Shown: positions 4,212 through 21,314 of the stretch, in pieces
Layout of the letters: the number at the start of each line of letters is the position of its first letter
How positions within the stretch are numbered: position 1 is the first letter of the stretch
Assembly (NCBI RefSeq): GCF_024281235.1
Contig: NZ_JAHWXY010000002.1
Coordinates: forward strand, 248,001-312,000
Source: Shinella daejeonensis
GTDB taxonomy: Bacteria > Pseudomonadota > Alphaproteobacteria > Rhizobiales > Rhizobiaceae
DNA length: 64,000 nt
Direction: 5' to 3'
Position numbers and translations under genes: made by a program
Notes under the pieces: generated by a model
Database searches by the model: none
The model's input: the letters and a program-made list of their open reading frames with translations, nothing else
Told to the model about the DNA's origin: nothing

Positions 4212-4343
4212 CCGACCGGCGCATGACACGGCCCCGTCGTCTTGCGCCGGCCCGGGATGCCGGCGGGGAGACGGGGGCGGCCCGCGCGGTGGAAGCGGGC
4301 TTGCCCGCCTTTCGGGACCGGGCTACAGGGGGAGGAATATTCA

Positions 4344-5183
4344 ATGCCGCCCCAGGGCGTCGAAACGATCGCCAAGGTGAGAAGCGTGTCTTCCGACGAG
4401 ACGAAGCGTGTTGACAGCGCCGATCCGCTGATGGTCCGATCGGTGGAAAAGGCCTTTCGTGTCCTCGAAGCCTTCGATGGCACCAACCGGACCTTCAGCC
4501 TGGCGCAGATCTGCGCCAGCGTCGGCCTCGACAAGAGCGCGGCGCAGCGTTTCACGCATACGCTCAACAAGCTCGGCTACCTGCACAAGGATCCGGTGAC
4601 CAAGCGTTTCGAGCTCAGCCTGCGAAGCCTCGAGATGGCGCGCCATTTCATCACCGCCAACCCGATCGTCAACCAGGCCATGCCCTATCTCCTCCATCTC
4701 AGCCGCGAGACGGAAGAAACGGTAAACCTCACCCTGCCCGACGGTCCGGAGATCGTTTTCGCAGCCCGCTTCATGAGCCGGCACATGCTGAACACCGACG
4801 TCGTCGTGGGCACCCGCATGCCGGCCTTCTGCACGGCGCCAGGCAAGGCCATTCTGTCCTGCCTGCCGGGTGAGGAAGCGCTGTCCCTTCTCCGGCGTTC
4901 GCCATTGCAGGCTTTCACACCGCAGACGATCCATACGGTCGACGAACTTCTCCTGCAACTGGAGACCGCCCGTGAAGCGGGGTATGCGACCGCATGGGGT
5001 GAGTTCTTCCCCGGCGACCTCTCCGTCGCCGCCGCCGTTCTCGATGGCAACGGCCGCCCCGTCGCCGCCGTCAATATCGGCGTCGCCAGCGCACGCTACA
5101 CGCCGGAAAAGGCCGAGGACGTCTTCGCCCCCCTTGTCACCGCCGCTGCCCGCTCGATTTCACAAGCCGCCTCCAACTTCTAG
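4344..5183 (+). CDS. IclR family transcriptional regulator
   Basis: A 279-residue repressor/activator with an N-terminal winged helix (about residues 28-90, VRSVEKAFRVLEAF then LAQICASVGLDKSAAQRFTHTL) and a C-terminal GAF-like effector domain (ETEETVNLTLPDG, GTRMPAFCTAPGKAILSCL). This is the usual IclR length and layout. The start is the ATG 7-8 bases after GGGGGAGGA. The frame stays open upstream to 4242, but that part is low in plausibility. IclR proteins often control catabolism of sugar acids and aromatics, so the flanking sugar operon or the flavin enzyme is the likely target. It converges with the LacI gene on its right. Confidence 0.93.
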   Translation: MPPQGVETIAKVRSVSSDETKRVDSADPLMVRSVEKAFRVLEAFDGTNRTFSLAQICASVGLDKSAAQRFTHTLNKLGYLHKDPVTKRFELSLRSLEMARHFITANPIVNQAMPYLLHLSRETEETVNLTLPDGPEIVFAARFMSRHMLNTDVVVGTRMPAFCTAPGKAILSCLPGEEALSLLRRSPLQAFTPQTIHTVDELLLQLETAREAGYATAWGEFFPGDLSVAAAVLDGNGRPVAAVNIGVASARYTPEKAEDVFAPLVTAAARSISQAASNF

Positions 5184-5243
5184 GGAAGAGCCGGCAAAAA
5201 GAGAGGCCCGCACGTGTCGCCGTTCTTTGGCAGCATGCGGCCC

Positions 5244-6251
5244 TCATGCCGTCTGGCCTTCCCGCAAGACGAAGCCGATATCGATGATCGTTTGCTCCGC
5301 AGGCCTGGACTTCTGCTCAAGCAGTTTCTCGGCAGCGATCTTTCCGATACGGAAACGATCCGAATAGATCGTGGAAAGAGCATGTGGCAGGGCTTCGCCG
5401 ATCTCAAGACCGTTGAAGCCGAAGAGAGCCAGATCATCTCGCACGGCAAGGCCGGCGGCCACGCAGTGCAGGTATCCGCCAACCGCCATGTCGTCGTTCG
5501 AGAAGACCACCACGTCGAGTTCCCGGCCCTGCTCTAGCAGTGACGCCAGCGACTGCCGTCCCTTCTGGATGGAACTGGGCCCTTCGGAGTAATGCTCGGC
5601 GACGATGCCCAGGCCATGGTCCGCCAGCGCAGCCCTCAATCCGTCGTATCTCAACCGTGACCGGCGGTCCGCGCGCCAGTCGTGTCCGACATAGCCGAAC
5701 TTGCGGTAGCCTTTGGCAATGAGGTGACGGCCAATCTCCAGACCCGCTTTCGGATGGGAAAGTCCGACAGCCACGTCGATGGGCGTCTCGTCGATCTCCA
5801 TCAGTTCGGCAATCCGCACCTTGTGATTGTCGAGCATGCGCCGTGTCGCGTCCGTATGATCGAAGCCGGTCAGGATGAGCGCCTCGGGATTCCATGCGAG
5901 CAGCGAAGCGACAATCTCCTGCTCGATCCGGGGATCGTATTCGGTCACACCGACAAGCGCCTGATAGCCACTCGCCGCAAGCGCGACATTGATGCCCCTG
6001 AGCACATCCGGAAACACGATATTCGTGAGCGAGGGAATCAGAACGCCGATCAGCTTCGAGCTTGACGAGGCGAGAGCGCCGGCGGCCCGGTTCGGCACGT
6101 AACCGAGCTGCTGCACCGCATCGAGCACCCGCTGGCGGGTGGCCTGCGCGATCGGCCCCTCTCCCCTGACAACGCGGGAAGCCGTTATCGGGCTTACGCC
6201 GGCCAGGCGCGCGACATCGGCGAGCCTTGGGACACTTCGTTTTATTTCCAC
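5244..6251 (-). CDS. LacI family transcriptional regulator of the downstream ABC/kinase operon
   Basis: A protein of about 335 residues with a LacI helix-turn-helix at its N-terminus (RLADVARLAGVSPITASRVV), hinge region (NRAAGALASSSSKLIGVLIP) and periplasmic-binding-like effector domain (FGFNGLEIGEALPHALSTI). An upstream ATG at 6281 is in frame but lies inside a palindromic operator and has no ribosome site. GTG at 6251 follows GGGGGTG by about 9 bases and gives a normal LacI N-terminus, so it is preferred. The gene is divergent from the importer operon starting at 6416, and two palindromes in the shared promoter region are its likely binding sites. The effector is unknown. Confidence 0.92.
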   Translation of the reverse strand: MEIKRSVPRLADVARLAGVSPITASRVVRGEGPIAQATRQRVLDAVQQLGYVPNRAAGALASSSSKLIGVLIPSLTNIVFPDVLRGINVALAASGYQALVGVTEYDPRIEQEIVASLLAWNPEALILTGFDHTDATRRMLDNHKVRIAELMEIDETPIDVAVGLSHPKAGLEIGRHLIAKGYRKFGYVGHDWRADRRSRLRYDGLRAALADHGLGIVAEHYSEGPSSIQKGRQSLASLLEQGRELDVVVFSNDDMAVGGYLHCVAAGLAVRDDLALFGFNGLEIGEALPHALSTIYSDRFRIGKIAAEKLLEQKSRPAEQTIIDIGFVLREGQTA

Positions 6252-6265
6252 CCCGTCACCCCCGA

Positions 6266-6281
6266 ATGATAGCGCTAACAT
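6266..6281. promoter_or_regulatory. LacI-type operator 1
   Basis: ATGATAGCGCTAACAT is an imperfect 16-base palindrome with the central AGCGCT core common in LacI-family operators. It lies just upstream of the preferred GTG start of the LacI gene, which suggests autorepression. Confidence 0.6.
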
Positions 6282-6321
6282 TTTCTGCTTGCGTCACTGT
6301 CCGGCCTATGCTTACAATCCA

Positions 6322-6337
6322 ATGGTAGCGCAACCAT
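6322..6337. promoter_or_regulatory. LacI-type operator 2
   Basis: ATGGTAGCGCAACCAT has perfect 5-bp outer arms (ATGGT/ACCAT) around a GCGC core and matches operator 1 in spacing and core. The centres of the two sites are 56 bp apart, close to whole helical turns, in the divergent promoter region. Confidence 0.65.
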
Positions 6338-6415
6338 CGGACTGGGATTATCCCATGAATCAGGATCGCGCGTCTACGCTCCGTGAAGGCTTTTGGCAAT
6401 AATAAGGGGAACGCC

Positions 6416-7681
6416 GTGAAGAACTTCAATCCAAAGATGCGGCAATCGATGATTGCATTGTCTGCGCTGCTCGCAACGACGACTTTAGCGCCGGCAGCCT
6501 CCGCCGCCGATGTCAGCATCTTTCTCTGGCAGTACGACGAGCCGGGAATTTCGACCTGGTGGCGCAACAGCGTCGCCGCCTATGAGGCGGAGACCGGCAA
6601 CAGGATGGTCGTGAGGAACACCACCGGCGCCCAGTACTATCAGCAGCTCGTGATCGAGATGGCGAGCGGTGACGCCGCCGACGTCATCGGCGTCAACACC
6701 TCCAATCTGCATGAGCTTGTCTCCGCCGGCAAGCTGAAGCCGCTGGACGATCTGCTTTCCGATCCCGCCGTCAAGGCGCGCATCCAGTCCGGCGGCTGGG
6801 ACGCCCTGACGGTCGACGGCAAGATCTACGCCGTTCCGATCGCCGGCCGCACCCTCGAGATGATCTACAACGCCTGTTATTTCGAAGAGGCCGGCATCTC
6901 CGGTCCGCCGACCACGCCGGAAGAGTATCTGGCGGCGGCCCGCAAGCTGACCAAGCGCGACGAATCCGGAAACATCACGCGCTACGGCACCAGCATGATG
7001 AACGCGAGCGAGGATCCGACCTATGAGATGCTCCTCATGTGGACGATCGCGCATGGCGGCCGTTTCGCCGATGCCGACGGGCAGTTCGCGCTGACCTCCG
7101 AGCCGGTCGAAAAGGCGCTCACCTTCATGAAGACCATCTATGACGAGGGTCTCGCGCCGCGCGGCATGAGCGAAACCGACCAGCGTTCGCTTTTCGCAAC
7201 CGGCAAGACGGCAATGACCATCGACGGCCAATGGCAGTTTCCCTTCGTCGAGCAGAACAATCCCGACCATTACGACTGCTACAAGTCCGCAAGTCGTCCG
7301 TGGGATGGCGTGGCGACCGGCGGCGTCACCGTTGCCCTCGCCCTGAACGCGGATGCAAAGGAACCCGAAGCCGCCCAGGCCTTCCTCGAACTCATCACGC
7401 GGCCGGAAATCCAGAGCACCTTTGCGGATCACTCGCCTTTCGTGCCTTTCGGCGTGGATGCGGTTTCCCAGGAACAGATCGCGTCGCGGCCCTATCTCGA
7501 GCCCTGGCTGAAGAGCATCGGAACCGCGATCCCCATCACCGTTCCCGGCCATGAAAACCAGTTCAATACGATATGGCCGATCGTGGTCAACGGCGTGGTG
7601 GCATCGCTCCAGGACGGGGTGGAGCCGAAGGATGCGCTTGCTGAAGTCCAGGACGAACTCGAGGGCTGCTGCGGAAAATGA
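6416..7681 (+). CDS. Carbohydrate ABC transporter substrate-binding protein (MalE/UgpB type)
   Basis: A 421-residue extracellular solute-binding protein family 1 member. It has a Sec signal peptide (KMRQSMIALSALL core, cleavage near ASA-A around residue 31) and the usual two-lobe pattern (GDAADVIGVNTSNLHEL, YAVPIAGRTLEMIYNACYF, GKTAMTIDGQWQF). The GTG at 6416 follows AGGGGA by about 6 bases; an upstream GTG at 6383 lacks such a site and would bury the signal peptide. It heads a long same-strand operon through 18395. The ligand is unknown. The linked kinase/phospho-lyase and GlpD-like enzymes suggest a glycerophospho- or amino-alcohol-containing solute rather than a plain sugar. Confidence 0.93.
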   Translation: MKNFNPKMRQSMIALSALLATTTLAPAASAADVSIFLWQYDEPGISTWWRNSVAAYEAETGNRMVVRNTTGAQYYQQLVIEMASGDAADVIGVNTSNLHELVSAGKLKPLDDLLSDPAVKARIQSGGWDALTVDGKIYAVPIAGRTLEMIYNACYFEEAGISGPPTTPEEYLAAARKLTKRDESGNITRYGTSMMNASEDPTYEMLLMWTIAHGGRFADADGQFALTSEPVEKALTFMKTIYDEGLAPRGMSETDQRSLFATGKTAMTIDGQWQFPFVEQNNPDHYDCYKSASRPWDGVATGGVTVALALNADAKEPEAAQAFLELITRPEIQSTFADHSPFVPFGVDAVSQEQIASRPYLEPWLKSIGTAIPITVPGHENQFNTIWPIVVNGVVASLQDGVEPKDALAEVQDELEGCCGK

Positions 7682-8652
7682 ACATGGTGCCGAGAAGCAT
7701 CCCCCTGGACGCCCGGCATGAAGCTCGACCTAAACCGGCGCTCGTCCGGTTTAGGGAGCTTTTTTCCGATGGAATGGGTTTTCCCGCTCTCATGGTGGCG
7801 CCCGCCTTGCTGACGCTTGCGGTCGTCATCGGCTTTCCCATCGTGAAAGGCCTGATCCTGAGCTTTCAGATGATCAAGCTCACCAGCCCGGCAACGGGTG
7901 GCGACTTCACCTTGTATAATTACGTGAAGATGTTTTCCGACAAGAACGTCCTGGCATCCGTCTGGCGTTCCTGTGTTTACATGTCGGGGTCCGTTCTCGG
8001 CGCCACCTTCGTCGGCCTGATCGCCGCGCTGCTGACGCGCAGGGCATTCATGGGGCGGTCCCTGTTCCGGACCTTCTTCATTCTGCCCTGGGCCATTCCC
8101 GCCGTCGCCACGACACTCGTCTGGGGTGTCATGTATGACGCCAATTTCGGCGTGATGAACCGTATCGTGCAGCTTCTGCCCGGCATCAATTCCAACATCG
8201 AATGGCTGATCGACCGCGATTATGTGCTGGGTTCCCTCATCGCCGTGCAGATCTGGGGGGATTTTCCCGTCGCCTATCTCTTCCTTCTGGCCGGGCTTCA
8301 GGCCATCCCGGAAGAACTTTACGAAGCCGCCAATGTCGATGGCGCCAACGGCTGGCAGCAGTTCTGGCACATCACGGCGCCGCAACTGCGCTACATCGTG
8401 ACCGTGACCATTATTCTGCTGGGGATCCTGAGCTTCCGCTCCTTCGCCGTCATTCATATCCTGACGGGCGGAGGCCCCAATCGGCGGACAGAGACCCTGG
8501 TGATACAGACCTACAACGCCGCCTTCCGTTCGTTCGACTTCAGTTACGGCGCGGCGCTCGGAATTCTGTCACTGATCTTCTCGGTCGTCATCGTCGCTCT
8601 TTACATTCGCCTCACGCTGGGCCGGGAAATGCGCGGGGCGGCGGCGACATGA
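7678..8652 (+). CDS. ABC transporter permease (MalF/UgpA type)
   Basis: A 324-residue inner-membrane subunit with about six membrane helices and the EAA loop (EELYEAANVDGANGWQQFWHITAPQL, near residue 220) that docks with the ATPase. The start ATG overlaps the binding-protein stop (ATGA). A strong terminator-like hairpin lies within the first 28 codons. A later in-frame ATG at 7774 would avoid the hairpin but has only a poor ribosome site and leaves little before the first helix, so the coupled start is kept. The partner permease follows with another ATGA overlap. Confidence 0.93.
   Translation: MNMVPRSIPLDARHEARPKPALVRFRELFSDGMGFPALMVAPALLTLAVVIGFPIVKGLILSFQMIKLTSPATGGDFTLYNYVKMFSDKNVLASVWRSCVYMSGSVLGATFVGLIAALLTRRAFMGRSLFRTFFILPWAIPAVATTLVWGVMYDANFGVMNRIVQLLPGINSNIEWLIDRDYVLGSLIAVQIWGDFPVAYLFLLAGLQAIPEELYEAANVDGANGWQQFWHITAPQLRYIVTVTIILLGILSFRSFAVIHILTGGGPNRRTETLVIQTYNAAFRSFDFSYGAALGILSLIFSVVIVALYIRLTLGREMRGAAAT
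7721..7765 (+). terminator. Intrinsic-terminator-like hairpin inside the start of the permease gene
   Basis: The arms AAGCTC(GA)CCTAAACCGG and CCGGTTTAGGGAGCTT pair over 16 bp with one 2-base bulge and a 7-base loop, directly followed by six T residues (7760-7765). This looks like a textbook rho-independent terminator, but it sits about 40-85 bases after the binding-protein stop and inside codons 15-30 of the permease. It probably makes most transcripts end after the binding-protein gene, and translating ribosomes may modulate it. Confidence 0.7.
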
Positions 8653-9473
8653 GAAACCTCACTCTATCGAAGGCGGTCCATCGCCTGATCCTCGTCGCGA
8701 CGACGATCTGCATTCTCTTCCCCATCTACTGGATGCTCGTTCTTGCATTCACCAAGTTGGGGATGAGCCGAAGCGTGGAGGGTTTCTACCCGGCCAGCCT
8801 GACCTTCAACAACTTCACGCAGCTCTTCACCGAAAGGCCGATGCTGCGCTGGCTGCTGAACAGCGCTCTCGTCGCCAGTATTTCCTCCGCGTTGTCGCTG
8901 CTGATCGGCACCTCGGCCGGCTATGCGCTGAGCCGGCTCCATTTCCGGGGGGCCGGGCTGATCATGATCCTGATCCTCGTCACCCAGATGATGCCGCCGA
9001 CAGCAATCGTCGTGCCGATCTACGACCTGTTCCGACAGCTCGGCATGCTGAACACCATTCAGGGCGTAACGCTTGGTCACATCTCGCTGGTCATTCCGCT
9101 CGCCGTCTGGATGACCAAGGGGTATTTCGACAGTATTCCGCTCGATCTGGAAAATGCCGCCCGCATCGACGGGTGCACGCGTCTGGCTGCATTCTGGCAT
9201 GTGGCCCTGCCGCTCGCCTCGCCCGGACTGATCGTCGTGTTCATCTACGGCTTCGTCACGAGCTGGCACGAATTCCTGTTCGCAAGGACGCTCGTCTCGC
9301 AACAGGAATTGTGGACCGGCGCGGTCGGGCTCGGCTCGTTCCGCGGCGAGTTCTTCACCCTTTTCGAACCGCAGATGGCCGCATCCGTCGTCTTCAGCGT
9401 GCCCGTGGTTCTGGTCTTCATGTTCCTGCAAAGGCGGTTGATCTCGGGCGGACTGGCGGGCGGCGTGCGCTAG
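8649..9473 (+). CDS. ABC transporter permease (MalG/UgpE type)
   Basis: A 274-residue inner-membrane subunit with six predicted helices, beginning MRNLTLSKAVHRLILVATTI. The cytoplasmic EAA loop is ENAARIDGCTRLAAFWHVALPLASPG near residue 180. The start overlaps the upstream permease stop (ATGA). Together with the MalF-type permease, the binding protein upstream and the ATPase downstream it completes a type-1 carbohydrate importer. Confidence 0.94.
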   Translation: MRNLTLSKAVHRLILVATTICILFPIYWMLVLAFTKLGMSRSVEGFYPASLTFNNFTQLFTERPMLRWLLNSALVASISSALSLLIGTSAGYALSRLHFRGAGLIMILILVTQMMPPTAIVVPIYDLFRQLGMLNTIQGVTLGHISLVIPLAVWMTKGYFDSIPLDLENAARIDGCTRLAAFWHVALPLASPGLIVVFIYGFVTSWHEFLFARTLVSQQELWTGAVGLGSFRGEFFTLFEPQMAASVVFSVPVVLVFMFLQRRLISGGLAGGVR

Positions 9474-9550
9474 GGCGCGAAAGCCTCGTGGAAACAATGA
9501 AAACTGCTTGCAGCGCATCCACCACGCGCCTGCACAATCGGGATTGAAAC

Positions 9551-10641
<1,091 letters not shown>

Positions 10642-10645
<4 letters not shown>

Positions 10646-12216
10646 GACAGCAATTGGCAGAGATCGACGGCCGGAGCTTCCAGGTCGTCATCGTCGGCGG
10701 CGGCATCAGCGGCGCGAGCGCGGCCCAATATCTGGCGACCGCCGGATACGATGTCCTGCTCGTCGAGAAGGACGATTACGCATCCGCGGCCACGAGCCGT
10801 TCCGGCCGCCTGCTGCACTGCGGCCTGCGCTATCTCGCGCCGACCTATTCCGTCTGGGAGTTCATCAAGGAGCCGAAGAAGGTCATCGCCGCCATGAGCG
10901 CCGCGTGGCGCTCGATCCGTTCCAGCACGCAATTCCTGGCAACCACGCCGGAACAGGCGCGCCCGATGACGGTGCACTCCGTCGTCTACAAAAACTCTCC
11001 CTATGCCGGCTGGCAGGTCGACATCGGGGCGCGGCTGCTGCAATTCCTGAACCTGAACCGACAGTCGCTCGGCTATCGCCGCAGCCGGCCCGGTTCCGCC
11101 GACACACCCCGGTTCATCGACTGGCTGCGCGACAAGAACGATGCCGCAAGCGTCGTCAGCATCAAGGATCATCAGTTCGACTGGCCCGAGCGCATCTGCG
11201 TGGACGCGGTGATCGAGGCGCGCCGGAAAGGCGCCACGGTCCGTAACTACACACGCGCCACGAAACTAGCCCGCACGCAGGACGGTCGCTGGGATGTGAC
11301 GCTGGAGGACGCCCTCCACGGCAATGCGACGGCCAAGGTCGGCTGCGACGTTATCCTCAACATGGCGGGCGCATGGATCGATCAGGTCAACCGCACCGTC
11401 GATGGCGCAACGCCGGCGCCGCGCAAGGTGCTGGCCGTCAAGGGCGTCCATATCCTCGTTCAGCTGCCGCCGGAATGCCGCGGCCAGGGCATCATGGGGG
11501 CCACGCGCTCCAAGGAGGGCCAGGCCTGTATTCCGTGGGGAGACCTGCATTATATCGGCCCGACCGAGACCCTTTACGATGGCGATCTCGACGATGTCCG
11601 GCCTCTGGAGGAAGACATCGCCTCGATCATCGACGAGATCAACTACATGATGCCGGGGATCGCGATCTCCCGCAGCGACGTCAAGCAGGCGTGGGCAGGC
11701 GTTCGGCCCATCACCTATGATCCCGCGTTCCCGAAAGGAAACCGGATGGCCTTCAGCCGGATGTACGACCTGACGGACGAGGGCATGCCCAATGTGTTCA
11801 CCCTCACCTGGGCGGCGATCATGTTCCATCGCTCCGCATCGGCGGAAATCCTGAAAGCGGTCAGGAAACGCATCGCACCGGCAGGGCCTGCCCGGCCACT
11901 GTCGTTTCGCGCCAGGAAATTTTCGCGAACACCGGTGCCGCAGCCGATCGTCGACAGCTACCCGTTGATCGGCATTGCCGACCTCATCGAATCGGCACGG
12001 GAAGAACAGCCGATGTCCCTCTATGATCTGCTTTTCCGAAGGCTGCCGCTCGGCTGGTTCACGCATATACCGCCGGAAGCGGTGGAGCGCGCGGCAAAGG
12101 CCGCCGCCGGGCCACTCGAATGGACCGAGGAACGCACCGCGCGGGAAATCGAGCGCTATCATGAACTGGTCGCCCGCTATCATTGCGACGACGGCCGCAC
12201 GCCCTGGCATATCTAG
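10642..12216 (+). CDS. GlpD-like FAD-dependent oxidoreductase
   Basis: A 524-residue DAO-fold flavoprotein. The dinucleotide-binding motif VVIVGGGISGASAA begins near residue 14, and SRSGRLLHCGLRYL (near residue 52) matches the corresponding region of aerobic glycerol-3-phosphate dehydrogenases. No signal peptide is seen. The length and N-terminal pattern fit GlpD, but the C-terminal part diverges, so the substrate may be another sn-glycerol or polyol phosphate. Translational coupling to the importer ATPase suggests it oxidises the imported compound or its first breakdown product. Confidence 0.8.
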
Positions 12217-12300
12217 CGCAAGTCCGGACATAGAACCGATTTCCGCTTTCACCGGAATTGCGCTGGACACACCAGAGGCCCTCACAGCCGGATCAGATGA

Positions 12301-13638
12301 TTGACGCCGACCGCCGCCAACCAGCCCATCGCCTTCAGCATCGGCCATCGCACGGTGCTGGCGCTGGCTATTCCGATGATGATCACCCATCTGTCGACAC
12401 CGCTCGTCGGCCTGGTGGCGACAGCGGTTATCGGCAGGCTGGGCGACAGCGCGCTCATCGCCGGGGTTGCGCTGGCCTCGGTCATCTTCGACGTCGTCTT
12501 CGTATCCTGCAACTTCCTGCGTTTCGCCACGACCGGCTTCACGGCGCAGGCCGTCGGGGCCAACGACAGACGCGGCGAGTATCAGGACCTTTCCGGCGCG
12601 ATCTGCCTGGCGCTGGCGATGGGCGTGATGCTCGTCGCATCGCAGGCCCTCATCCTCGCGGGCGGGATGGCCGCCCTCTCGGTCGACGAGGCTCTGCGTC
12701 CCGTCGTCCGGGAGTATTTTTTCTGGCGCATCTGGTCCGCTCCGTTCGTGCTGTTCAACTATGTCCTGTTCGGCTGGCTGCTCGGCCGCGGTAGCGTCCT
12801 CATGGCGCTTGCCTTGCAGACGTTCCTGAACGGCGTCTGCATAGGCCTCAGCATCTATCTGGTGCTTTATCTCGATCTCGGGGTTGCCGGCGCGGCGATG
12901 GCCAGTCTCTTCGCCGAATTTGCAACCTTCGCCGTTGGCCTGCTGGTGATGGCCCGCACTATCGACCGGGAGGCGTGGAAACAACGCAACATACAAAGCG
13001 GATGGAACTGGCGACGCCTGCTGCGGGTCAATCTCGATCTCATGGTCCGTTCTATCGCACTTCTTGTCGGCGTTTCACTTTTCACGCGCCAGAGCGCAAC
13101 CCTCGGGGTCGATATTCTGGCTGCCAATACGATCCTGCTCAGGCTCTATTTCGTCAGCGTCGCGATCCTCGACGGTTTTGCCACAGCAGCCGAGCAGCTG
13201 GCAGGCCGGGCCGTTGGCGCGCGCTATCGCCCGGCCTTCGACTTCGCCATTCGCGCCACCACCCGATGGGGGCTCGGATTTGCGGTTGCGCTCTGCCTTG
13301 GCCTTCTTTTCGCCGGCCCTGTCCTGATCGACATGATGGCGCCGACAGCCGCCGTGCGCGACATTGCCGATCGTTTCCTGCCCTGGGCGGCCATCCTGCC
13401 CGTCGCAGCCGTCACGGCTTTCCAGCTCGACGGCGTTTTCGTCGGCGCCACCTGGTCGCGCGAGATGCGCAACATGATGCTTCTCTCTCTTGCGGTCTTC
13501 GTTGCCGCCTTCACGATCCTGCAACCACCCTTCGGAAACCACGGTCTCTGGATCGCCATGGTGATCTTCCAGCTTGCCCGTTGCGCAGGGTTCGGCCTGC
13601 TGCTGCCGAGGCTCGCCGCGCGAACGTTTCCCCGCTAG
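12301..13638 (+). CDS. MATE family efflux transporter
   Basis: A 445-residue integral membrane protein with about twelve helices and internal two-fold repeat typical of MATE cation/drug antiporters (HLSTPLVGLVATAVIGRLGDSALIAGVALASVIF near the N-terminus). The only plausible start is TTG at 12301, weakly preceded by CCGGA. No earlier in-frame start exists close by. It lies 84 bases after the FAD enzyme and 50 bases before the kinase fusion, all on one strand. An exporter inside an uptake/catabolic operon may expel a toxic intermediate, but the substrate is not predictable. Confidence 0.88.
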   Translation: MTPTAANQPIAFSIGHRTVLALAIPMMITHLSTPLVGLVATAVIGRLGDSALIAGVALASVIFDVVFVSCNFLRFATTGFTAQAVGANDRRGEYQDLSGAICLALAMGVMLVASQALILAGGMAALSVDEALRPVVREYFFWRIWSAPFVLFNYVLFGWLLGRGSVLMALALQTFLNGVCIGLSIYLVLYLDLGVAGAAMASLFAEFATFAVGLLVMARTIDREAWKQRNIQSGWNWRRLLRVNLDLMVRSIALLVGVSLFTRQSATLGVDILAANTILLRLYFVSVAILDGFATAAEQLAGRAVGARYRPAFDFAIRATTRWGLGFAVALCLGLLFAGPVLIDMMAPTAAVRDIADRFLPWAAILPVAAVTAFQLDGVFVGATWSREMRNMMLLSLAVFVAAFTILQPPFGNHGLWIAMVIFQLARCAGFGLLLPRLAARTFPR

Positions 13639-13688
13639 CTTTTTGCTGGTAACGGAGAGGCAGGAAAACGGTTATACGGGAGATGACG

Positions 13689-16600
13689 ATGGCGGATCAG
13701 CAGCTGGCGAAGATCGAAGCCCTCTTGCGCGACAGTTACGGCGTGGGGGGCGCACTTGCGCCGCTGCCCGGAGAGCACGACCTGAATTTCCGCGTGAACG
13801 CCGGAGACGGCAGGCAGTACCTGCTGAAGCTTCATGCGCCCGGCGACGCGGCGGAACTGGACATGCAGATCGCCGTGCTGGAGCACCTGCGCCGGACGGC
13901 CCCCGATCTTCCGGTATCGCGCATGTTTGCGGCACGGTCCGGCAAGGCGGCCGTCACCGTCGATATTCACGGCCCCCGTACCGCACGCCTGCTCGACTGG
14001 CTGCCCGGCGACGTCTGGGCCAAGGCGAAGATCCGCAATCGCGCAAGCTCCGAAACGCTCGGCCGCCTGCTCGGCGAACTGGGCCGGCATCTGGAGCGCT
14101 TCGATCACGGCGGCGCGGAGCGCATCTATGACTGGGACATCGGCCGCGCCGAAAGGCACATCGCCCATGTGGACATGATCGACGATCCGGAAAAGCGTGA
14201 CGCGGTACGCGCTGTCCTGCACCGTTTCACGACCGACACGCTGCCGCGCCTCGCCGGTTGCCCGCGCCAGATCATCCATAACGACGCCAACGACTACAAC
14301 GTGCTGCTCGACGCCAACGGCAATGTCAGCGGACTTCTCGACTTCGGCGACATGGTGAAGACCTACCGGGTGGTCGAGATCGCCGTTGCAGCGGCTTATG
14401 CGCTCATCGGCGAAAATGACGGCGTCGATACGATTGCCGCGATCGCCGGAGCCTATCACGCGGTCAACCCGATCAGCGAGACGGAAGCCGGGCTGCTGTT
14501 CGATCTCGTGCGCACCCGCTATGCGGTCAGCATCTGCATGGCCGCAAAGCAGATCCGCGCCAATCCGGAAAACACCTATCTTCTGGTAAGCCAGGAGGAC
14601 ATTTGGCGCGAACTGCGGCGGCTGGACCGGGAAAACCGGGCTATCGCGGTCGCACGCATCCGCGATGCCTGCGGCTTTTCACCGATCCCCGGTGCGGCGG
14701 CGGTCATGCGCTGGCTGGAACGCAACGCCCATGATTTTTCGCCCGTCGTCCGCCCCCGGACCGCAAAGCCGAAAGTGACCGCGCTCGACTTCTCGCAAGC
14801 CAATGCCGACGAATGGGCCGGCCTCGACACGCCCGCCTTCGAGGCGCGCATTTTCGACCGCATCGCCCGGGACGGTTCGGATTTCGCCATCGGCCTCTAC
14901 GGCGAGGACCGGGTCATCTACAAGGGCGACGCCTTCGAGACGGTGACGGAGGGCGAACGCAGGACCACCCATCTCGGCATCGATATCTTCGCGCCGGCCG
15001 GCGAACCGGTCCATGCGCCCTTTGCCGGCAAGATCGCCTTCATTCACGATGATGCGGTGGACTACGGTTTCGGGCCGACGGTGCTCATCGAGCACAGCAC
15101 GGACGACGGAACCGTTTTCTGGACGCTTTACGGGCATCTCGCCCGCGCCGGCGTGGAAAAGCTCTCCATCGGCCAGCCGATCGCCAAAGGCGAGGCTTTC
15201 GCGGCCTTCGGCGCGGCGGCGGAGAACGGCAACTGGGCCGCGCACCTGCACTTCCAGATCGTCACCGACCATCTCGGCCTTGGGGGCCGCATGCACGGCG
15301 TCGGCGTGCGCGACCAGTGGCAGGTCTGGCGCGCGGTGAGCCCCGATCCCAGCGTCGTGCTCGGCCTGCCGGTCCCCGCCGCGGTGCGTGTCGCGCGCGA
15401 CAAGGCGTTTCTCATGCGCGAGCGGCATCGCCACATCGGCCGGTCGCTCTCCACCGCCTATGGGTCGGCCCCGCTGAAGATCGTCGGCGGCGAGGGAGCG
15501 CATCTCATCGACGAGACCGGCACGCGCTGGCTCGACATGGTCAACAACGTCTGCCATATCGGCCATTGCCACCCCCGCGTGGTGAAGGCGGCGCAGGCGC
15601 AGACGGCAAGGCTCAACACCAATTCGCGCTATCTCCACGATTCGCTGGTGGAATACGCCCACCGGCTGACGGCGCAGTTTCCCGACCCGCTCAACGTCTG
15701 CTTCTTCGTCAATTCCGGCAGCGAGGCCAACGATCTGGCGATCCGGCTGGCGCGCGCCTATACCGGCAACCGCGACATCATCACCGTCGACCATGCCTAT
15801 CACGGGCACCTTTCGAGCATGATCGACGTCAGCCCCTACAAATTCGCCGGCAAGGGCGGCGAGGGCCAGCCCGCCCACGTCCAGGTCGCCGAGATGCCCG
15901 ACCTTTATCGCGGCCGCTTCCGCTATGGCGACGCGGACGCGGGCCGCAAATATGCACAGAGCGTGAAGGACAGGATCGACGCACTGGCCGCAGAAGGGCG
16001 CAGGCCCGCGCTGTTCTTCAGCGAAGGCATCCTCGGCACCGGCGGCCAGCTCACGCTGCCGGAAAACTACCTGAAGGAAGCCTTCGCCCATGTGCGCGCG
16101 GCCGGCGGGCTCTGCCTTGCAGACGAGGTGCAGGTCGGCTTCGGCCGCGTCGGCCGTCACATGTGGGCGCATGAGACGCAGGGCGTCGTGCCGGACATCG
16201 TCACCATGGGCAAGCCGATCGGCAACGGCCATCCGATGGCCGCCGTCGTCACCACCGAGGCGATCGCAGCCGCCTTCGCCAACGGCATGGAGTATTTCAA
16301 CACCTTCGGCGGCAATCCGGTCTCCGCGGAAATCGGCCTCGCCGTGCTGGATGTCATCCGCGACGAGCGGCTGATGCACCATTGCCTTGTGATCGGCGAC
16401 CGGCTGATGGATGGCGCGCGGGAACTGGCCCGACGCCATTCGCTCATCGGCGACGTGCGCGGTTATGGTCTTTTCAACGGTATCGAACTGGTGCGCGACC
16501 GCGAGACGCTGGAACCGGCGGCACGCGAACTCGATCTCGTCATCACCGGGATGAAGGAGCGGCACCATATCCTGCTCAGCAGCGAGGGTCCGCATCATAA

Positions 16601-16697
16601 CGTCCTGAAGATCAAGCCGCCGGCCCCCTTCAGCGCCGGGGACTGCGATCGCTTCCTGAATGCCCTGGACGACGTGCTCGGACGCATCGCGGATTAG
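13689..16697 (+). CDS. Three-domain fusion: APH-type kinase, M23 metallopeptidase, class-III PLP phospho-lyase/aminotransferase
   Basis: A 1002-residue protein. Residues 1-340 form a choline/aminoglycoside-kinase-like domain with the Brenner motif HNDANDYN (197-204) and the metal-binding DFGD (218-221). Residues 410-540 are an M23 (LytM) domain with zinc motifs HLGID (428-432), YGHL and HLH (519-521). Residues 570-1000 are a class-III aminotransferase fold with PLP lysine K842 in TMGKPIGNGHP. Veiga-da-Cunha and colleagues used bacterial kinase/aminotransferase fusions of this type to identify hydroxylysine kinase and the ammoniophospholyases of phosphoethanolamine and phosphohydroxylysine. 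An aminoalcohol is therefore probably phosphorylated and then cleaved to aldehyde, ammonia and phosphate. GGGAG spacing favours ATG 13689 over 13683. No signal peptide is present. Confidence 0.9.
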   Translation: MADQQLAKIEALLRDSYGVGGALAPLPGEHDLNFRVNAGDGRQYLLKLHAPGDAAELDMQIAVLEHLRRTAPDLPVSRMFAARSGKAAVTVDIHGPRTARLLDWLPGDVWAKAKIRNRASSETLGRLLGELGRHLERFDHGGAERIYDWDIGRAERHIAHVDMIDDPEKRDAVRAVLHRFTTDTLPRLAGCPRQIIHNDANDYNVLLDANGNVSGLLDFGDMVKTYRVVEIAVAAAYALIGENDGVDTIAAIAGAYHAVNPISETEAGLLFDLVRTRYAVSICMAAKQIRANPENTYLLVSQEDIWRELRRLDRENRAIAVARIRDACGFSPIPGAAAVMRWLERNAHDFSPVVRPRTAKPKVTALDFSQANADEWAGLDTPAFEARIFDRIARDGSDFAIGLYGEDRVIYKGDAFETVTEGERRTTHLGIDIFAPAGEPVHAPFAGKIAFIHDDAVDYGFGPTVLIEHSTDDGTVFWTLYGHLARAGVEKLSIGQPIAKGEAFAAFGAAAENGNWAAHLHFQIVTDHLGLGGRMHGVGVRDQWQVWRAVSPDPSVVLGLPVPAAVRVARDKAFLMRERHRHIGRSLSTAYGSAPLKIVGGEGAHLIDETGTRWLDMVNNVCHIGHCHPRVVKAAQAQTARLNTNSRYLHDSLVEYAHRLTAQFPDPLNVCFFVNSGSEANDLAIRLARAYTGNRDIITVDHAYHGHLSSMIDVSPYKFAGKGGEGQPAHVQVAEMPDLYRGRFRYGDADAGRKYAQSVKDRIDALAAEGRRPALFFSEGILGTGGQLTLPENYLKEAFAHVRAAGGLCLADEVQVGFGRVGRHMWAHETQGVVPDIVTMGKPIGNGHPMAAVVTTEAIAAAFANGMEYFNTFGGNPVSAEIGLAVLDVIRDERLMHHCLVIGDRLMDGARELARRHSLIGDVRGYGLFNGIELVRDRETLEPAARELDLVITGMKERHHILLSSEGPHHNVLKIKPPAPFSAGDCDRFLNALDDVLGRIAD

Positions 16698-16739
16698 CAG
16701 GAGCCCGGCCAACTGCCTGAACGAGAAAGGAAGAACGGA

Positions 16740-18395
16740 ATGCAGCAGCGTTTCGCCGTCGTTGCCGATCCCCATGTCCACGATATTCGCGGCGACTACC
16801 GTCTCGGCCGGATCGGGGCGGATCGCCTGCCGGCAAGGCTGGAACTGCGCACGCTCGCCGACAGCGCCCGCTCCACCCGGCTCTTCAACGAAAGCGGGCA
16901 CGCCTTCCGCGCCGCCCTCGACGACATCGCCGCGCGCGGCATCCGCCACGTCATCGTGGTGGGCGACTATTCCGACGACGGGCAGGAAGCCAGCGTCACC
17001 GCAGCCCTCGCGCTGATGCGATCCTACGGGGAACGGTTCGGGATGCGCTTTTACGCCACCGTCGGCAATCACGATGTTTACGGCGATACCGGCCGCAGCC
17101 TCGACCGCCGGTTCCTGCTGGCGAACGGCAACCATTTCACCGTCTCCGGATCGAAATCCGACGATGGCGAGCGGACGATCTTCAATCCGGCCATGCGCTG
17201 CCGGTCCTATGCGCAGGGCCTGCCGTCCGCCCTGGGTTTCTTCCGCGACGGGCATGAACTGCATTGGGAAACGCCGTTCGGCCCGTCCGACGCGCTCGCC
17301 GACCGTCAATACACCGTTGCCTCACCGGACGGACGGCGACACCGGCGCTTCATCGATGCGTCCTATCTGGTGGAGCCCTCCCCCGGCGTCTGGCTGCTCT
17401 CCATAGACGGCAACGTCTTCGTTCCCCGCAACGGCGACGGTTTCCGGCGGCCGGAAGACGCTTTCGACGACAGTACGGACGCCGGCTATAATGCGCTGGT
17501 CCGCCACCGTCCCTATCTCATCGACTGGATCGCCGATATCGTGCGGCGGGCGGACGAGCAGGGAAAACGGCTCGTCGCCTTCACCCATTATCCCGCCGTC
17601 GATCCATTCGACGACACCCACGGCGACGAGGAACGCCTGCTTGGCCGCACGGTCTTCGTGCGCCGCACACCGCTTGCGGCAACCGCCGCCGTTCTGGCGC
17701 AGACGGGCCTTCGGCTGCATTTCAGCGGCCATCTCCATATCGATAATGTGACGACAGAAGACGGCCTGACAAATGTCGCCGTGCCCTCGACCGCGGGCTA
17801 TCCCGGCGGCTATCGCATCCTCACGCTCCATGCTGACGGAGCGGAACTGGAAACCGTCCGCCTTGCGAGCCATCCCCTCGATCCCGCCATCCTTTCGGCC
17901 TATCGGACGGAAGCGGATCAAACGGACATCGACGCCGGCGGCCTGCTGGAGGCGGCCGATTATGAAGCCTTCATCCACGCCCATCTGCGCGGCGTCATCC
18001 GTCACCGTTTTTTCGCGACAGAATGGCCGGAAGCCTTGCAGCGGGAAATCGGCCGGCTGACGCTTGCCGACCTCATCCGGCAGGCAGACAGCGTCGCGAC
18101 CCTCCCGTCGGAAGCCCTCGCCCCGCTGGAGCATCTGCCGGCGATGTATCTCGTCGAGGCGACCTATGTCGCCCGCCACAATGGCGCATGGCGCTACGAG
18201 ATTTCCCCCGCTGAGCGCGGGCTTCTGGAAAGCCTTCTCCCGGCCGGCCGGGGAGAGGGCCCGGGACTTGCGGCAACGATCCTGCGCAATTTCCGCCGGC
18301 ACTTCGACAAGCCGGATTTCCGGCGCATCGCCTTTTCGCGCGACTGGACGCCCGTCTGCGAGGACGGACGCCATTTCCGCAGGAAAATCGCCTAG
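16740..18395 (+). CDS. Calcineurin-like metallophosphoesterase
   Basis: A 551-residue protein. The complete two-metal signature is visible: DPH (residues 10-12), GDYSDDG (75-81), GNHD (109-112), HYP and GHLH (330-333). A long C-terminal part after about residue 380 matches nothing I recognise. There is no signal peptide, so it probably acts in the cytoplasm on a phospho-mono- or diester. GGAAG precedes the ATG. It is the last gene of the LacI-linked operon, 42 bases after the fusion gene, and could hydrolyse a glycerophosphodiester to feed the kinase/lyase and the GlpD-like enzyme. Confidence 0.88.
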   Translation: MQQRFAVVADPHVHDIRGDYRLGRIGADRLPARLELRTLADSARSTRLFNESGHAFRAALDDIAARGIRHVIVVGDYSDDGQEASVTAALALMRSYGERFGMRFYATVGNHDVYGDTGRSLDRRFLLANGNHFTVSGSKSDDGERTIFNPAMRCRSYAQGLPSALGFFRDGHELHWETPFGPSDALADRQYTVASPDGRRHRRFIDASYLVEPSPGVWLLSIDGNVFVPRNGDGFRRPEDAFDDSTDAGYNALVRHRPYLIDWIADIVRRADEQGKRLVAFTHYPAVDPFDDTHGDEERLLGRTVFVRRTPLAATAAVLAQTGLRLHFSGHLHIDNVTTEDGLTNVAVPSTAGYPGGYRILTLHADGAELETVRLASHPLDPAILSAYRTEADQTDIDAGGLLEAADYEAFIHAHLRGVIRHRFFATEWPEALQREIGRLTLADLIRQADSVATLPSEALAPLEHLPAMYLVEATYVARHNGAWRYEISPAERGLLESLLPAGRGEGPGLAATILRNFRRHFDKPDFRRIAFSRDWTPVCEDGRHFRRKIA

Positions 18396-18413: not shown

Positions 18414-18500
18414 GCGGAGCGGTTTTCCGTCCGCATCCCGCTCTGTCTCTGGAAGCGATCTTATGAATTCAGGCCTATTCGGCCCGAGTTCATAACGATC
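18414..18500. terminator. Tandem hairpins between convergent genes
   Basis: A small hairpin (GCGGAGCGG-tttt-CCGTCCGC, 18414-18434) is followed by a long imperfect palindrome (18457-18500; arms begin GATCTTATGAA and end TTCATAACGATC, inner GGCC/GGCC). They lie between the phosphoesterase stop and the convergent epimerase stop. Either could end transcription from both sides. There is no T-run. Confidence 0.45.
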
Positions 18501-19531
18501 TAGCGCTTGCGCGGCCAGGTATCGGCGAGGCGATAGCCGGCCGGCCAGGGATCGTCCGGATCGAGCATCACCTGATGGGTGCCGGTGACCCAGGCCCGGC
18601 CGGAGATTTCCGGCACGATGGCCGGACGGCCGCCGACCGTGGTCTCGCCGACGATGCGGCAATCGAAGCGCGAATCGATGATCGAATAGCCGGAAAAATG
18701 CTGCCCAACCTTCATCCGGCCACGGGCATGCAGCACCGCCATGCGCGCCGAGCACCCCGTTCCGGTGGGGGAACGGTCAAGCTTGGCCGGCTGGATGACC
18801 ACCGTGTTGCGTCCGTGCAGAACGCCGTCGCGCTCCTCCACCGGCAGCGTGAGCTGGCAGAAGGAGATATGGTTCCATTCCGGATTTTCCGGATGGGTGA
18901 AACCGAGCTGTTCGTTGGCGGCCCTGGTGATGCGGATGCCCGTCTCGGCAAGCTCCCGCGCCTCGTCCGGCGTCACTGCGAAGCCGAGCGTGCGGGCGTC
19001 GGTCAGCACGAAACTGTCACCGCCATAGGCGGTGTCCACAGTCAGGGTGCCGAGGCCCTCTACCTCCAGCTTCGCGTCCAGCTTGTCGGCGAAGGAGGGA
19101 ACGTTGGTGACGGCGATCCGCTCCGCCTTGCCGTTGCGGCAGGTGGCGACCACATTCACCAGGCCGCCCGGCGCTTCCAGCACCATGCGGGTTTCCGGCT
19201 CGACCATCGGCACGATGCCGCTGTCCAGCAGCACGGTCGAAACGCAAATGGAGTTGGAGCCGGACATGGGCGGCGTATCCTCCGGCTCCATGATGATGAA
19301 ACCCATGGTGGCGCGCGGATCCTTCGGCGGGACCAGAAGATTGATATGGCGGAATACCCCGCCTCGCGGCTCGTTCAGCACGAAATCCCGCAGCGTCTTG
19401 TCGTTGGCGATGAAATTGCGCTGCTCCCAAAGCGTATCGCCCGGAGGCGGGGCCACCCCGCCGACGATCACGTCGCCGACTTCCCCTTCCGCATGGCATG
19501 AAACAATATGGATGACCTTGCTGCTGCGCAT
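18500..19531 (-). CDS. Proline racemase family protein, Ser-Cys type (hydroxyproline 2-epimerase-like)
   Basis: A 343-residue member of the proline racemase superfamily, which inverts C2 of proline derivatives with two facing acid/base residues. Here the first is Ser90 (PPMSGSN) rather than Cys, and the second is Cys260 (SPTGTGCSA). Known members with Cys-Cys are proline racemases or 4-hydroxyproline epimerases, and Cys-Thr enzymes are trans-3-hydroxyproline dehydratases. Ser-Cys enzymes have been linked to epimerisation of 4- and 3-hydroxyproline. GGAGG lies 8 bases before the ATG. It is divergent from a GntR gene and borders a hydroxyproline catabolic set, which supports this role. Confidence 0.85.
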
Positions 19532-19628
19532 TGCGCTTCCTCCACGTTCAAGGGATTTGATCCACGACCTTCCCGCGCCGCGGAGAAAAACAGCGGAGCG
19601 GTGTTATAAGGATAGAAAAATAGGATCC

Positions 19629-19637
19629 AATATACAA
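19629..19637 (-). promoter_or_regulatory. TTGTATATT motif in epimerase/GntR divergent promoter
   Basis: On the minus strand this reads TTGTATATT and is followed by a GGATCC palindrome. The same TTGTATA core recurs at 24184-24192 and 25872-25880, in the other two promoter regions of the hydroxyproline island. It is a candidate operator half-site for one of the local GntR proteins. Confidence 0.4.
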
Positions 19638-19747
19638 TCACCTCCGTGCCGCAACAGATGGATTTCTGCCGCCGTTGCCCGCCAGGCCGATTGGCCCTAT
19701 GACCGGGAGACGGGAACGGCATACTGATCCCGCGTGGAGAAAAGACC

Positions 19748-20416: not shown

Positions 20417-20474
20417 CGCAAACCACACCCCATCGGAAGAAGCCCATTGACCGCGCGACGGGGAAAAGTATTTC

Positions 20475-20488
20475 TTATGTCGACAAAA
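20475..20488. promoter_or_regulatory. GntR-type operator TTATGTCGACAAAA
   Basis: A 14-base inverted repeat (one mismatched pair) centred on TGTCGACA, ending 9 bases before the start of the second GntR gene. The same core occurs as a perfect palindrome at 21216-21227 before the DapA-family gene. It points to autoregulation and disfavours the alternative ATG at 20477, which lies inside the site. Confidence 0.6.
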
Positions 20489-20497
20489 GGATTTTTC

Positions 20498-21202: not shown

Positions 21203-21215
21203 TTCTTGTATTTTA

Positions 21216-21227
21216 TTTGTCGACAAA
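21216..21227. promoter_or_regulatory. GntR-type operator TTTGTCGACAAA
   Basis: A perfect 12-base palindrome in the gap between the second GntR gene and the DapA-family gene, sharing the TGTCGACA core with 20475-20488. It lies 88 bases before the DapA-family start. Confidence 0.65.
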
Positions 21228-21314
21228 CAAAACACAGCCTGCTAGAAGCTTCTGCGAGGGGTCGGGAAGCCATATGGGACCGGCCCGTAACTGAAAGGCC
21301 AAGAGGAGACCTAC

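What the first reader, a model, noticed from the sequence alone, without database searches (positions are those of the whole stretch)
6266..18395. Candidate undescribed catabolic operon for a phosphorylated amino-alcohol or glycerophospho compound
One strand carries, in order, a MalEFGK-type importer, a GlpD-like FAD enzyme coupled to its ATPase, a MATE exporter, a kinase/M23/PLP-lyase fusion and a metallophosphoesterase, with a divergent LacI gene and two operators. Kinase plus class-III PLP phospho-lyase is known chemistry for ethanolamine or hydroxylysine phosphate. A phosphodiesterase plus a glycerol-3-phosphate-dehydrogenase-like enzyme would complete use of glycerophosphoethanolamine. 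The gene set and order are seen. The substrate is inference.
Basis: partly seen in the sequence, partly recalled or inferred. Interest (0 to 1): 0.78.

Follow-up and report, generated by a model that had tools for sequence, protein, structure and literature searches.

The report
Mosaic amino-alcohol catabolic operon in Shinella
A soil bacterium carries an operon with its own regulator that couples a sugar-type importer and a flavin enzyme to a kinase/lyase fusion of the kind that breaks down amino-alcohols; it is probably a new combination of known parts, and glycerophosphoethanolamine, the first guess, is an unlikely substrate.

Summary
The gene order is real: LacI (-), two operator-like sites, then SBP-MalF-MalG-MalK-FAD-MATE-kinase/M23/lyase fusion-metallophosphoesterase (+), in a Shinella genome. 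The kinase/lyase part is well supported: kinase motif, PLP lysine, and a lyase domain close to ethanolamine-phosphate phospho-lyase. The glycerophosphoethanolamine reading is not supported: the 'GlpD-like' enzyme and its 16 aligned relatives lack the GGKxTT(Y/F)R motif kept in E. coli GlpD and in two true GlpDs of this genome. Of 16 orthologous importer loci none shows the fusion or the phosphoesterase; 14 carry an enolase-superfamily gene, 12 an imine-reductase-like gene, 11 a class-V PLP enzyme, and two share FAD and MATE. In all 10 close fusion loci examined there is an amino-acid importer plus SDR instead. So the operon is a mosaic: an importer-FAD-MATE unit joined to a portable amino-alcohol kinase/phospho-lyase and a phosphoesterase. 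Best reading: catabolism of a nitrogen-bearing polyol or glycoside whose amino-alcohol part is phosphorylated and eliminated to aldehyde, ammonia and phosphate. Substrate unknown. The neighbouring cluster has dehydratases for both 3-hydroxyproline isomers, which leaves a collagen/hydroxylysine reading open.

The parts
5244..6281 (-). LacI-family regulator, GntR/IdnR-like; the ORF starts at 6281, inside operator 1; a GTG at 6251 is an alternative start that leaves the operator outside the gene
   Evidence: Pfam LacI + Peripla_BP_1/3; best NCBIfam GntR_PSEAE 306.6 bits, under its cut-off of 400; start read from the sequence
6267..6280 (.). operator-like site 1, TGATAGCGCTAACA
   Evidence: one of two exact matches in the assembly
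6323..6336 (.). operator-like site 2, TGGTAGCGCAACCA
   Evidence: one of two exact matches in the assembly
6416..7681 (+). CUT1-type solute-binding protein (ORF from 6383; the GTG at 6416 after AAGGGGAACGCC is the likelier start)
   Evidence: Pfam SBP_bac_1/8; start from sequence; 16 orthologous loci at 52-59%; model pLDDT 81, nearest solved folds listed are mostly oligosaccharide-binding proteins
7678..8652 (+). MalF-type permease
   Evidence: Pfam BPD_transp_1
8649..9473 (+). MalG-type permease
   Evidence: Pfam BPD_transp_1 on the longer ORF 8202-9473; start 8649 from overlap and homology
9551..10645 (+). MalK/UgpC-type ATPase
   Evidence: NF008653 511.9 bits, over its cut-off of 432
10642..12216 (+). 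GlpD-like FAD enzyme of the DAO family, not a glycerol-3-phosphate dehydrogenase by score and motif
   Evidence: Pfam DAO; WAAIMFHR in place of GGKLTTYR; orthologues 57% and 54% in L111 and L117
12301..13638 (+). MATE exporter, DinF-like
   Evidence: Pfam MatE; DinF model 247 bits, under its cut-off of 409; orthologues 53% in L111 and L117
13683..16697 (+). kinase / M23 / class-III PLP phospho-lyase fusion (APH about 13770-14459, M23 about 14967-15266, lyase about 15468-16679)
   Evidence: Pfam; NF004799 1373 bits; motifs HNDANDYN, HxxxD + HxH, GKPIGNG; PDB 6tor ethanolamine-phosphate phospho-lyase 479 bits
16740..18395 (+). calcineurin-like metallophosphoesterase, no signal peptide seen by eye; DxH, GD, GNHD, H and GHLH motifs intact
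   Evidence: Pfam Metallophos; motifs invariant in 9 of 9 aligned

Best explanation
It is a LacI-controlled catabolic operon for a small nitrogen-bearing polyol, aminoglycoside-like or glycosylated amino-alcohol compound. The sugar-type ABC importer brings the compound in. The FAD enzyme oxidises or cleaves it at the nitrogen or an alcohol. The freed 1,2-amino-alcohol is phosphorylated by the kinase domain and eliminated by the PLP domain to an aldehyde, ammonia and phosphate. The MATE protein exports an inhibitory compound, and the phosphoesterase removes phosphate from a side or entry product. Shown: genes, order, motifs, kinship and contexts. Inferred: one transcript, control by LacI, the direction of the pathway, each substrate, and the roles of MATE and the phosphoesterase. 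The operon is a mosaic of an importer-FAD-MATE unit found elsewhere and a portable kinase/lyase module.
For: Intact kinase, PLP and phosphoesterase motifs. The lyase domain matches PDB 6tor, ethanolamine-phosphate phospho-lyase, at 479 bits, E 1e-142; with the whole fusion as query it scores 477 bits, 5g4i (phospholyase) 294, and no other listed chain above 186. Importer, FAD and MATE occur together in two other genomes, L111 and L117. The fusion clade lies with an amino-acid importer plus SDR in all 10 other loci examined, which ties the fusion to an amino compound. The same genome has a second operon, L048, with a sugar-type importer, diol-dehydratase-like gene, SDR, kinase and phospho-lyase-like gene, so this pairing of importer and chemistry recurs. 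Five of six annotated FAD relatives lie beside an ABC importer (amino-acid type in two, PotABCD-like in one, peptide type in two), one of them with an ornithine cyclodeaminase gene. The two operator-like sites have no other exact copy in the assembly (weak).
Against: No genome examined repeats the whole set. The importer's 16 orthologues live with other enzymes, so what it carries may be unrelated to the fusion. The fusion's own partner module (amino-acid importer + SDR) is missing here. GC content steps up along the operon (LacI and importer 59-62%, FAD and MATE 64%, fusion and phosphoesterase 66%), as two units of different origin would. R54, Y55, H233 and R317 of GlpD are kept in the FAD enzyme. 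No promoter was found upstream by the simple scan. No substrate was tested and no transcript data exist.
Confidence: 0.42

Rival explanations
1. Two unrelated units share a strand: an importer-FAD-MATE operon for one compound, followed by a separately used kinase/lyase gene and phosphoesterase that landed downstream.
For: Importer loci and close fusion loci are disjoint in all loci examined (16 and 10). The joins MATE-fusion and fusion-MPE were seen in no other locus examined. FAD-MATE gap is 84 bp and GC rises from 59-62% (importer) to 66% (fusion, MPE).
Against: Gaps of 44 and 42 bp; the three + strand terminator-like hits lie inside malF and the MATE gene, none between genes; the operator-like pair lies upstream of the importer only (weak).
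Confidence: 0.25
2. One reading: glycerophosphoethanolamine is imported, cut by the phosphoesterase, glycerol-3-phosphate is oxidised by the FAD enzyme and ethanolamine goes through kinase and phospho-lyase.
For: Lyase near ethanolamine-phosphate phospho-lyase; phosphoesterase with intact motifs whose relatives sit with inositol monophosphatase and organophosphate-type importers; MalK passes the UgpC model; R54, Y55, H233 and R317 of GlpD kept.
Against: FAD enzyme lacks GGKxTT(Y/F)R and scores 124 against 360 bits, while two true GlpDs (779 and 736 bits) lie elsewhere in the genome; UgpC is a subfamily-level model; no match to the phosphoesterase in the 16 importer loci (other phosphodiesterases were not sought there); no UgpB among the 50 listed nearest folds of 1172 at E 0.001 or better.
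Confidence: 0.07
3. Collagen reading: the fusion is a hydroxylysine kinase plus 5-phosphohydroxylysine phospho-lyase and the operon uses free or glycosylated hydroxylysine beside a hydroxyproline cluster.
For: Trans-3-hydroxyproline dehydratase (654 bits, cut-off 550) and cis-3-hydroxyproline dehydratase (929, cut-off 700) lie at 18500-19531 and 30166-31860. The fusion clade goes with SBP_bac_3 amino-acid importers. In 5 of 6 Ensifer/Sinorhizobium loci a MalK match directly follows the fusion; in S. meliloti that importer is followed by an MGH1-like glycoside hydrolase and a GH42 beta-galactosidase.
Against: The lyase's best match is the ethanolamine-phosphate enzyme; no phosphohydroxylysine lyase sequence was to hand for comparison. 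The hydroxyproline genes are a separate unit (the first is convergent with MPE, the rest are on the + strand). No collagenase was sought. Only one S. meliloti locus was scanned for glycosidases.
Confidence: 0.15

Closest known systems
Hydroxylysine kinase (HYKK/AGPHD1) and the ammoniophospholyases ETNPPL and PHYKPL of animals (gene names recalled)
   Same: A kinase and a class-III PLP phospho-lyase act on amino-alcohols; the lyase domain here is close to ethanolamine-phosphate phospho-lyase 6tor (479 bits; that 6tor is human is recalled).
   Different: Both are fused in one chain here with an M23 domain between them, inside an import operon; substrate untested. The animal work (Veiga-da-Cunha 2012) was seen only as a cited reference in PMC8154272 (passages); the paper is not held.
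NCBIfam NF004799 (PRK06148) kinase/M23/aminotransferase fusion
   Same: Full-length match over the cut-off; 28 of 151 related genomes have a member over the cut-off.
   Different: The window gene belongs to a separate clade (support 100/100, 20-row tree); the 10 other clade loci examined lie with an amino-acid importer and SDR.
Phospholyase of PDB 5g4i (A1RDF1 of Arthrobacter, recalled)
   Same: Class-III fold phospho-lyase, 296 bits.
   Different: Single-domain and more distant than 6tor.
Ugp glycerol-3-phosphate / glycerophosphodiester uptake and GlpD
   Same: MalK passes the UgpC subfamily model; the FAD enzyme's four solved relatives at E 1e-10 or better are glycerol-3-phosphate dehydrogenases/oxidases.
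   Different: Permeases far below the UgpA/UgpE cut-offs, no UgpB model hit, GlpD motif lost.
Alphaproteobacterial cluster MR_MLE / LysR / class-V PLP enzyme / PotABCD-type importer / OCD / MalEFGK (found here; no name known to me)
   Same: Orthologous importer (52-59%), and in L111 and L117 also the FAD enzyme and MATE.
   Different: The window genome has no close MR_MLE (best 31%, 45 bits) or class-V gene of that type (best 28%, 126 bits); kinase/lyase and phosphoesterase stand in their place.

Membership tests
NF004799/PRK06148 kinase-M23-phospholyase fusion | full-length match over the curated cut-off | tested here: met
   1373 against 1128 bits, positions 9-1011 of 1015
NF004799/PRK06148 kinase-M23-phospholyase fusion | kinase HxDxxxxN, M23 HxxxD and HxH, PLP lysine | tested here: met
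   HNDANDYN at residue 199, THLGID at 429, HLHFQ at 521, GKPIGNG at 843; roles of the motifs recalled
Ethanolamine-phosphate / phosphohydroxylysine phospho-lyase | sequence closer to phospho-lyases than to class-III transaminases | tested here: met
   6tor 477 and 5g4i 294 bits against at most 186 for other chains (best 60 of 186 listed)
Ethanolamine-phosphate / phosphohydroxylysine phospho-lyase | elimination of phosphate and ammonia from the phosphorylated amino-alcohol | not testable with these tools
   needs an enzyme assay
Glycerol-3-phosphate dehydrogenase GlpD | curated model cut-off | tested here: not met
   123.6 against 360 bits
Glycerol-3-phosphate dehydrogenase GlpD | GGKxTT(Y/F)R motif, its lysine (K354) recalled as a phosphate ligand | tested here: not met
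   WAAIMFHR; motif kept in E. coli GlpD and three GlpD-type proteins of this genome. R54, Y55, H233 and R317 are kept in the window enzyme, which is evidence on the other side
UgpABCE glycerol-3-phosphate / GPC importer | UgpC model | tested here: met
   511.9 against 432 bits, subfamily level only
UgpABCE glycerol-3-phosphate / GPC importer | UgpB-like binding protein, UgpA/UgpE cut-offs | tested here: not met
   UgpA 90 against 335 and UgpE 80 against 297 bits; no UgpB model among the four SBP hits
Metallophosphoesterase, phosphodiesterase type | DxH, GD, GNHD, H, GHxH metal ligands | tested here: met
   invariant in 9 of 9 aligned sequences
Metallophosphoesterase, phosphodiesterase type | diesterase rather than monoesterase activity | tested here: inconclusive
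   profile best hit Lmo2642 E 1.7e-12; fold model failed, pLDDT 34

The most novel reading that the evidence does not exclude
The region is a collagen-fragment utilisation island: 3-hydroxyproline dehydratases for both isomers (at 18500-19531 and 30166-31860) beside an operon that imports a glycosylated hydroxylysine-type compound through a sugar-type importer, with the fusion acting as bacterial hydroxylysine kinase and phospho-lyase, and its apparently intact M23 metallopeptidase domain releasing the amino-alcohol from a peptide-like conjugate before phosphorylation.
Probability: 0.1. Interest if true: 0.7.

Novelty: new variant of a known kind. Interest (0 to 1): 0.42.

Why it matters
Kinase plus phospho-lyase removal of amino-alcohols seems little studied in bacteria (my searches found no bacterial operon of this kind), yet this one genome has four kinase/lyase pairs, next to three types of importer. 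That makes a tractable set for finding substrates. The fusion also holds an M23 metallopeptidase domain with its metal ligands kept and no clear reason to be in a small-molecule enzyme. The work also separates a conserved importer cluster in Alphaproteobacteria for which I know no name, and shows that a gene that looks like glycerol-3-phosphate dehydrogenase belongs to a different DAO subfamily.

Tried and rejected
Rejected: FAD enzyme as GlpD (motif and score). Rejected: whole set conserved. Led nowhere: single-sequence fold of the phosphoesterase (pLDDT 34), not used for a fold search. The SBP fold search gave mostly oligosaccharide-binding proteins at TM about 0.6 and does not decide the ligand. 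The first scan of genome contigs with the SBP alone found no relative; the alignment did. Paper searches for hydroxylysine kinase, phospholyase, GlpD residues, S. meliloti locus tags (tags guessed from memory), rhizobial hydroxylysine use, phosphohydroxylysine and 3-hydroxyproline enzymes gave nothing on this operon; apart from PMC8154272 (passages) these papers were seen only in listings. Considered without test: iminosugars, calystegines, diethanolamine, opines.

Rows dropped: the S. meliloti 1021 locus L032 was not in the printed range; it is the same locus type as L036 and is not counted among the 10 fusion loci (one search shows the same matches). L036 is the source of the reference proteins for that count. 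Three of the 19 loci (L124-L126, best segments 24-27%) are left out of the 16. L123 was left out of alignment A2 and of the SBP model because its match is split into two pieces. A 25% match to the fusion over 353 aa in L110 is a generic class-III aminotransferase-level hit and is not counted as the fusion. Of 92 plasmid records with the fusion over 80% of its length I fetched neighbourhoods of seven (L032, L036, L145-L149); of 85 records with the phosphoesterase eight (L033-L035, L150-L154).
Full report
What is there. The window lies in a Shinella genome: two genomes of the same genus hold contigs of exactly the lengths of named Shinella plasmids (684,612 and 1,891,767 bases). MalK and FAD overlap by ATGA. 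The two operator-like palindromes in the LacI-SBP gap are the only exact matches of their pattern in the 4.66 Mb assembly. The pattern was written from them, and at one mismatch the reversed control gave 13 hits against 7, so this is weak support. GC is 59-62% in LacI and importer genes, 64% in FAD and MATE, 66% in fusion and phosphoesterase; the window mean is 64.7%.

The fusion. The kinase motif HNDANDYN, the PLP lysine in GKPIGNG and the M23 ligands HxxxD and HxH are present; the M23 ligands are kept in 16 of 17 aligned fusions and lost in L051d. The lyase domain matches PDB 6tor, ethanolamine-phosphate phospho-lyase, at 479 bits and the phospholyase 5g4i at 296 bits; with the whole fusion as query no other listed chain passes 186 bits. 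A 20-row tree puts the window gene in a clade with S. meliloti, three Shinella genomes and one other genome of the family (support 100/100). In all 10 loci of that clade whose neighbourhoods I scanned (L036, L037-L040, L145-L149; L036 supplied the reference proteins) the fusion lies with an SBP_bac_3 amino-acid binding protein, a permease and an SDR. None of these is in the window operon. Of 10 loci of more distant fusions 7 have an Lrp-type gene beside the fusion. In S. meliloti the fusion is followed, 105 bp on, by a sugar-type importer, an MGH1-like glycoside hydrolase, a LacI-like gene and a GH42 beta-galactosidase; a MalK match directly follows in 5 of 6 Ensifer/Sinorhizobium loci. That importer is not the window's: its permeases are 25-32% identical and the window's binding protein gives no match there.

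The FAD enzyme. It scores 124 bits against GlpD's cut-off of 360. I aligned it and 16 relatives with E. coli GlpD and three GlpD-type proteins of this genome. The motif GGK(L/I/W)TT(Y/F)R is kept in all four of the latter and in none of the 17. The window enzyme has WAAIMFHR. That the lysine (K354) binds phosphate is recalled; a paper search found no text to confirm it. R54, Y55, H233 and R317 are kept in the window enzyme, which counts the other way. Two true GlpDs over the cut-off lie elsewhere. In 24 of 201 related genomes, the window's own among them, there is a match at E 1e-60 or better, but none outside the window's genome exceeds 45% identity. Of six annotated relatives on plasmids, two lie with amino-acid importers, one with a PotABCD-like importer, two with peptide-type importers (one of these also with an ornithine cyclodeaminase gene), and one near a trimethylamine methyltransferase family gene without an adjacent importer. 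I therefore drop the glycerol-3-phosphate step.

The importer. In 397 genomes of the order, at E 1e-40 or better, only two orthologues of the binding protein (52% and 57%) and one distant relative (31%) turned up beside the window itself. A profile scan of one genome for each of 84,980 species gave 16 orthologous loci in Nitratireductor, Pelagibacterium, Cucumibacter, Mesorhizobium and others. Their neighbours are strikingly constant: an enolase-superfamily (MR_MLE) dehydratase-like gene in 14 of 16, a LysR gene, a class-V PLP enzyme (best models SufS and EgtE, both far under their cut-offs) in 11 of 16, a PotABCD-type importer, and an ornithine-cyclodeaminase-family gene in 12 of 16. The L109 copy of the last scores 308.6 against 322 bits for the Pyr2C/Pip2C reductase model; the copy next to the binding protein in L106 is more distant (122). 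Several loci are cut by contig ends, so these are lower bounds. Two, L111 and L117, also carry the FAD enzyme (57 and 54%) and the MATE gene (53%). None of the 16 (8-21 kb each) matches the fusion or the phosphoesterase at E 1e-10. The window genome has no close MR_MLE or class-V gene of that type. A model of the binding protein (pLDDT 81, 16 sequences) is nearest to proteins that bind oligosaccharides; UgpB is not among the 50 listed of 1172 matches.

The phosphoesterase. All metal-ligand motifs are invariant in nine aligned sequences and I see no signal peptide. Of eight other loci, six have an Fbp/Afu-like importer nearby and five an inositol-monophosphatase-like gene within about 2 kb upstream, four of these with a Na/Pi transporter; two lie in glycan gene clusters. 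None of the eight has the fusion. The best solved relative is Lmo2642 (E 1.7e-12). A phosphoester substrate is likely; which one is open.

The same genome, other loci. Three further kinase + lyase pairs exist as separate genes. L048 has a sugar-type importer, a diol-dehydratase-like ORF that joins large and medium subunits (779 and 165 bits, both under their cut-offs of 788 and 248), and an SDR. L049 has a divergent PotABCD-type importer and SDR. L050 has an MR_MLE gene, an HpcH-type gene and a divergent ribose-type importer inferred from weak matches. L048's kinase and lyase were confirmed by Pfam; those of L049 and L050 rest on similarity and, for the kinases, on the HxDxxxxN motif. So kinase/phospho-lyase chemistry with sugar-class importers recurs in this organism. 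This is the best independent support for reading the window operon as amino-alcohol or amino-polyol catabolism.

Interpretation. The operon is a mosaic: an importer-FAD-MATE unit known from elsewhere plus a portable kinase/lyase and a phosphoesterase, beside one LacI gene. I commit to a catabolic operon for a nitrogen-bearing polyol or glycoside, at confidence 0.42. The chief rival is that two unrelated units share a strand (0.25); the GC step speaks for it. The glycerophosphoethanolamine route is unlikely (0.07).

The bold reading. The neighbours include a trans-3-hydroxyproline dehydratase, convergent with the operon, and a cis-3-hydroxyproline dehydratase 12 kb on, both over their cut-offs, with an amino-acid importer and a DadA-like enzyme (under its cut-off) between them. 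Hydroxylysine and 3-hydroxyproline are both collagen residues (general knowledge). Together with the glycosidases behind the S. meliloti fusion, this leaves open that the fusion acts on hydroxylysine. Nothing here distinguishes hydroxylysine from ethanolamine.

Novelty. The fusion family is known to NCBIfam, and the two-step chemistry is known from animals (Veiga-da-Cunha 2012, seen only as a cited reference in PMC8154272; the paper itself is not held). New is the operon setting and the combination. Paper searches found no description of this operon in the open-licence library; most subscription papers are not held there.

Noticed in passing
window 18500-31860: Next-door genes for trans-3-hydroxy-L-proline dehydratase (654 bits, cut-off 550) and cis-3-hydroxy-L-proline dehydratase LhpI (929, cut-off 700), with DHDPS- and ALDH-family genes, an amino-acid importer and a DadA-like enzyme: probably hydroxyproline catabolism.
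   Followed up: partly
L048 (G000:C37:130000-149000), 1-14903: A second operon of this genome: sugar-type importer, B12-type diol/glycerol dehydratase-like ORF joining large and medium subunits, SDR, kinase, phospho-lyase-like gene, GntR, with a gamma-glutamyltranspeptidase further on.
   Followed up: partly
window 14967-15266 and 16 aligned homologues: M23 metallopeptidase domain with HxxxD and HxH ligands kept inside a kinase/lyase fusion in 16 of 17 aligned proteins; no reason for it is known to me.
   Followed up: partly
L108-L123: Conserved alphaproteobacterial cluster: MR_MLE dehydratase-like gene, LysR, class-V PLP enzyme, PotABCD-type importer, OCD-family gene, MalEFGK importer; function unnamed.
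   Followed up: partly
window 7729-7755: 10-bp hairpin followed by TTTTTT about 50 bases into malF, terminator-like; could damp expression after the binding protein. The scan as a whole found fewer such sites than shuffles (7 against 10.4).
   Followed up: no
window 318-5183: Minus-strand genes for a DUF2291 lipoprotein, a ribose-type binding protein and a PGDH_C-domain dehydrogenase, next to plus-strand genes for a luciferase-like monooxygenase and an IclR regulator.
   Followed up: no
window 32992-36278: ORF whose best model is caprolactamase subunit alpha (500 bits, under its cut-off of 1000) after a PotA-type ATPase gene.
   Followed up: no
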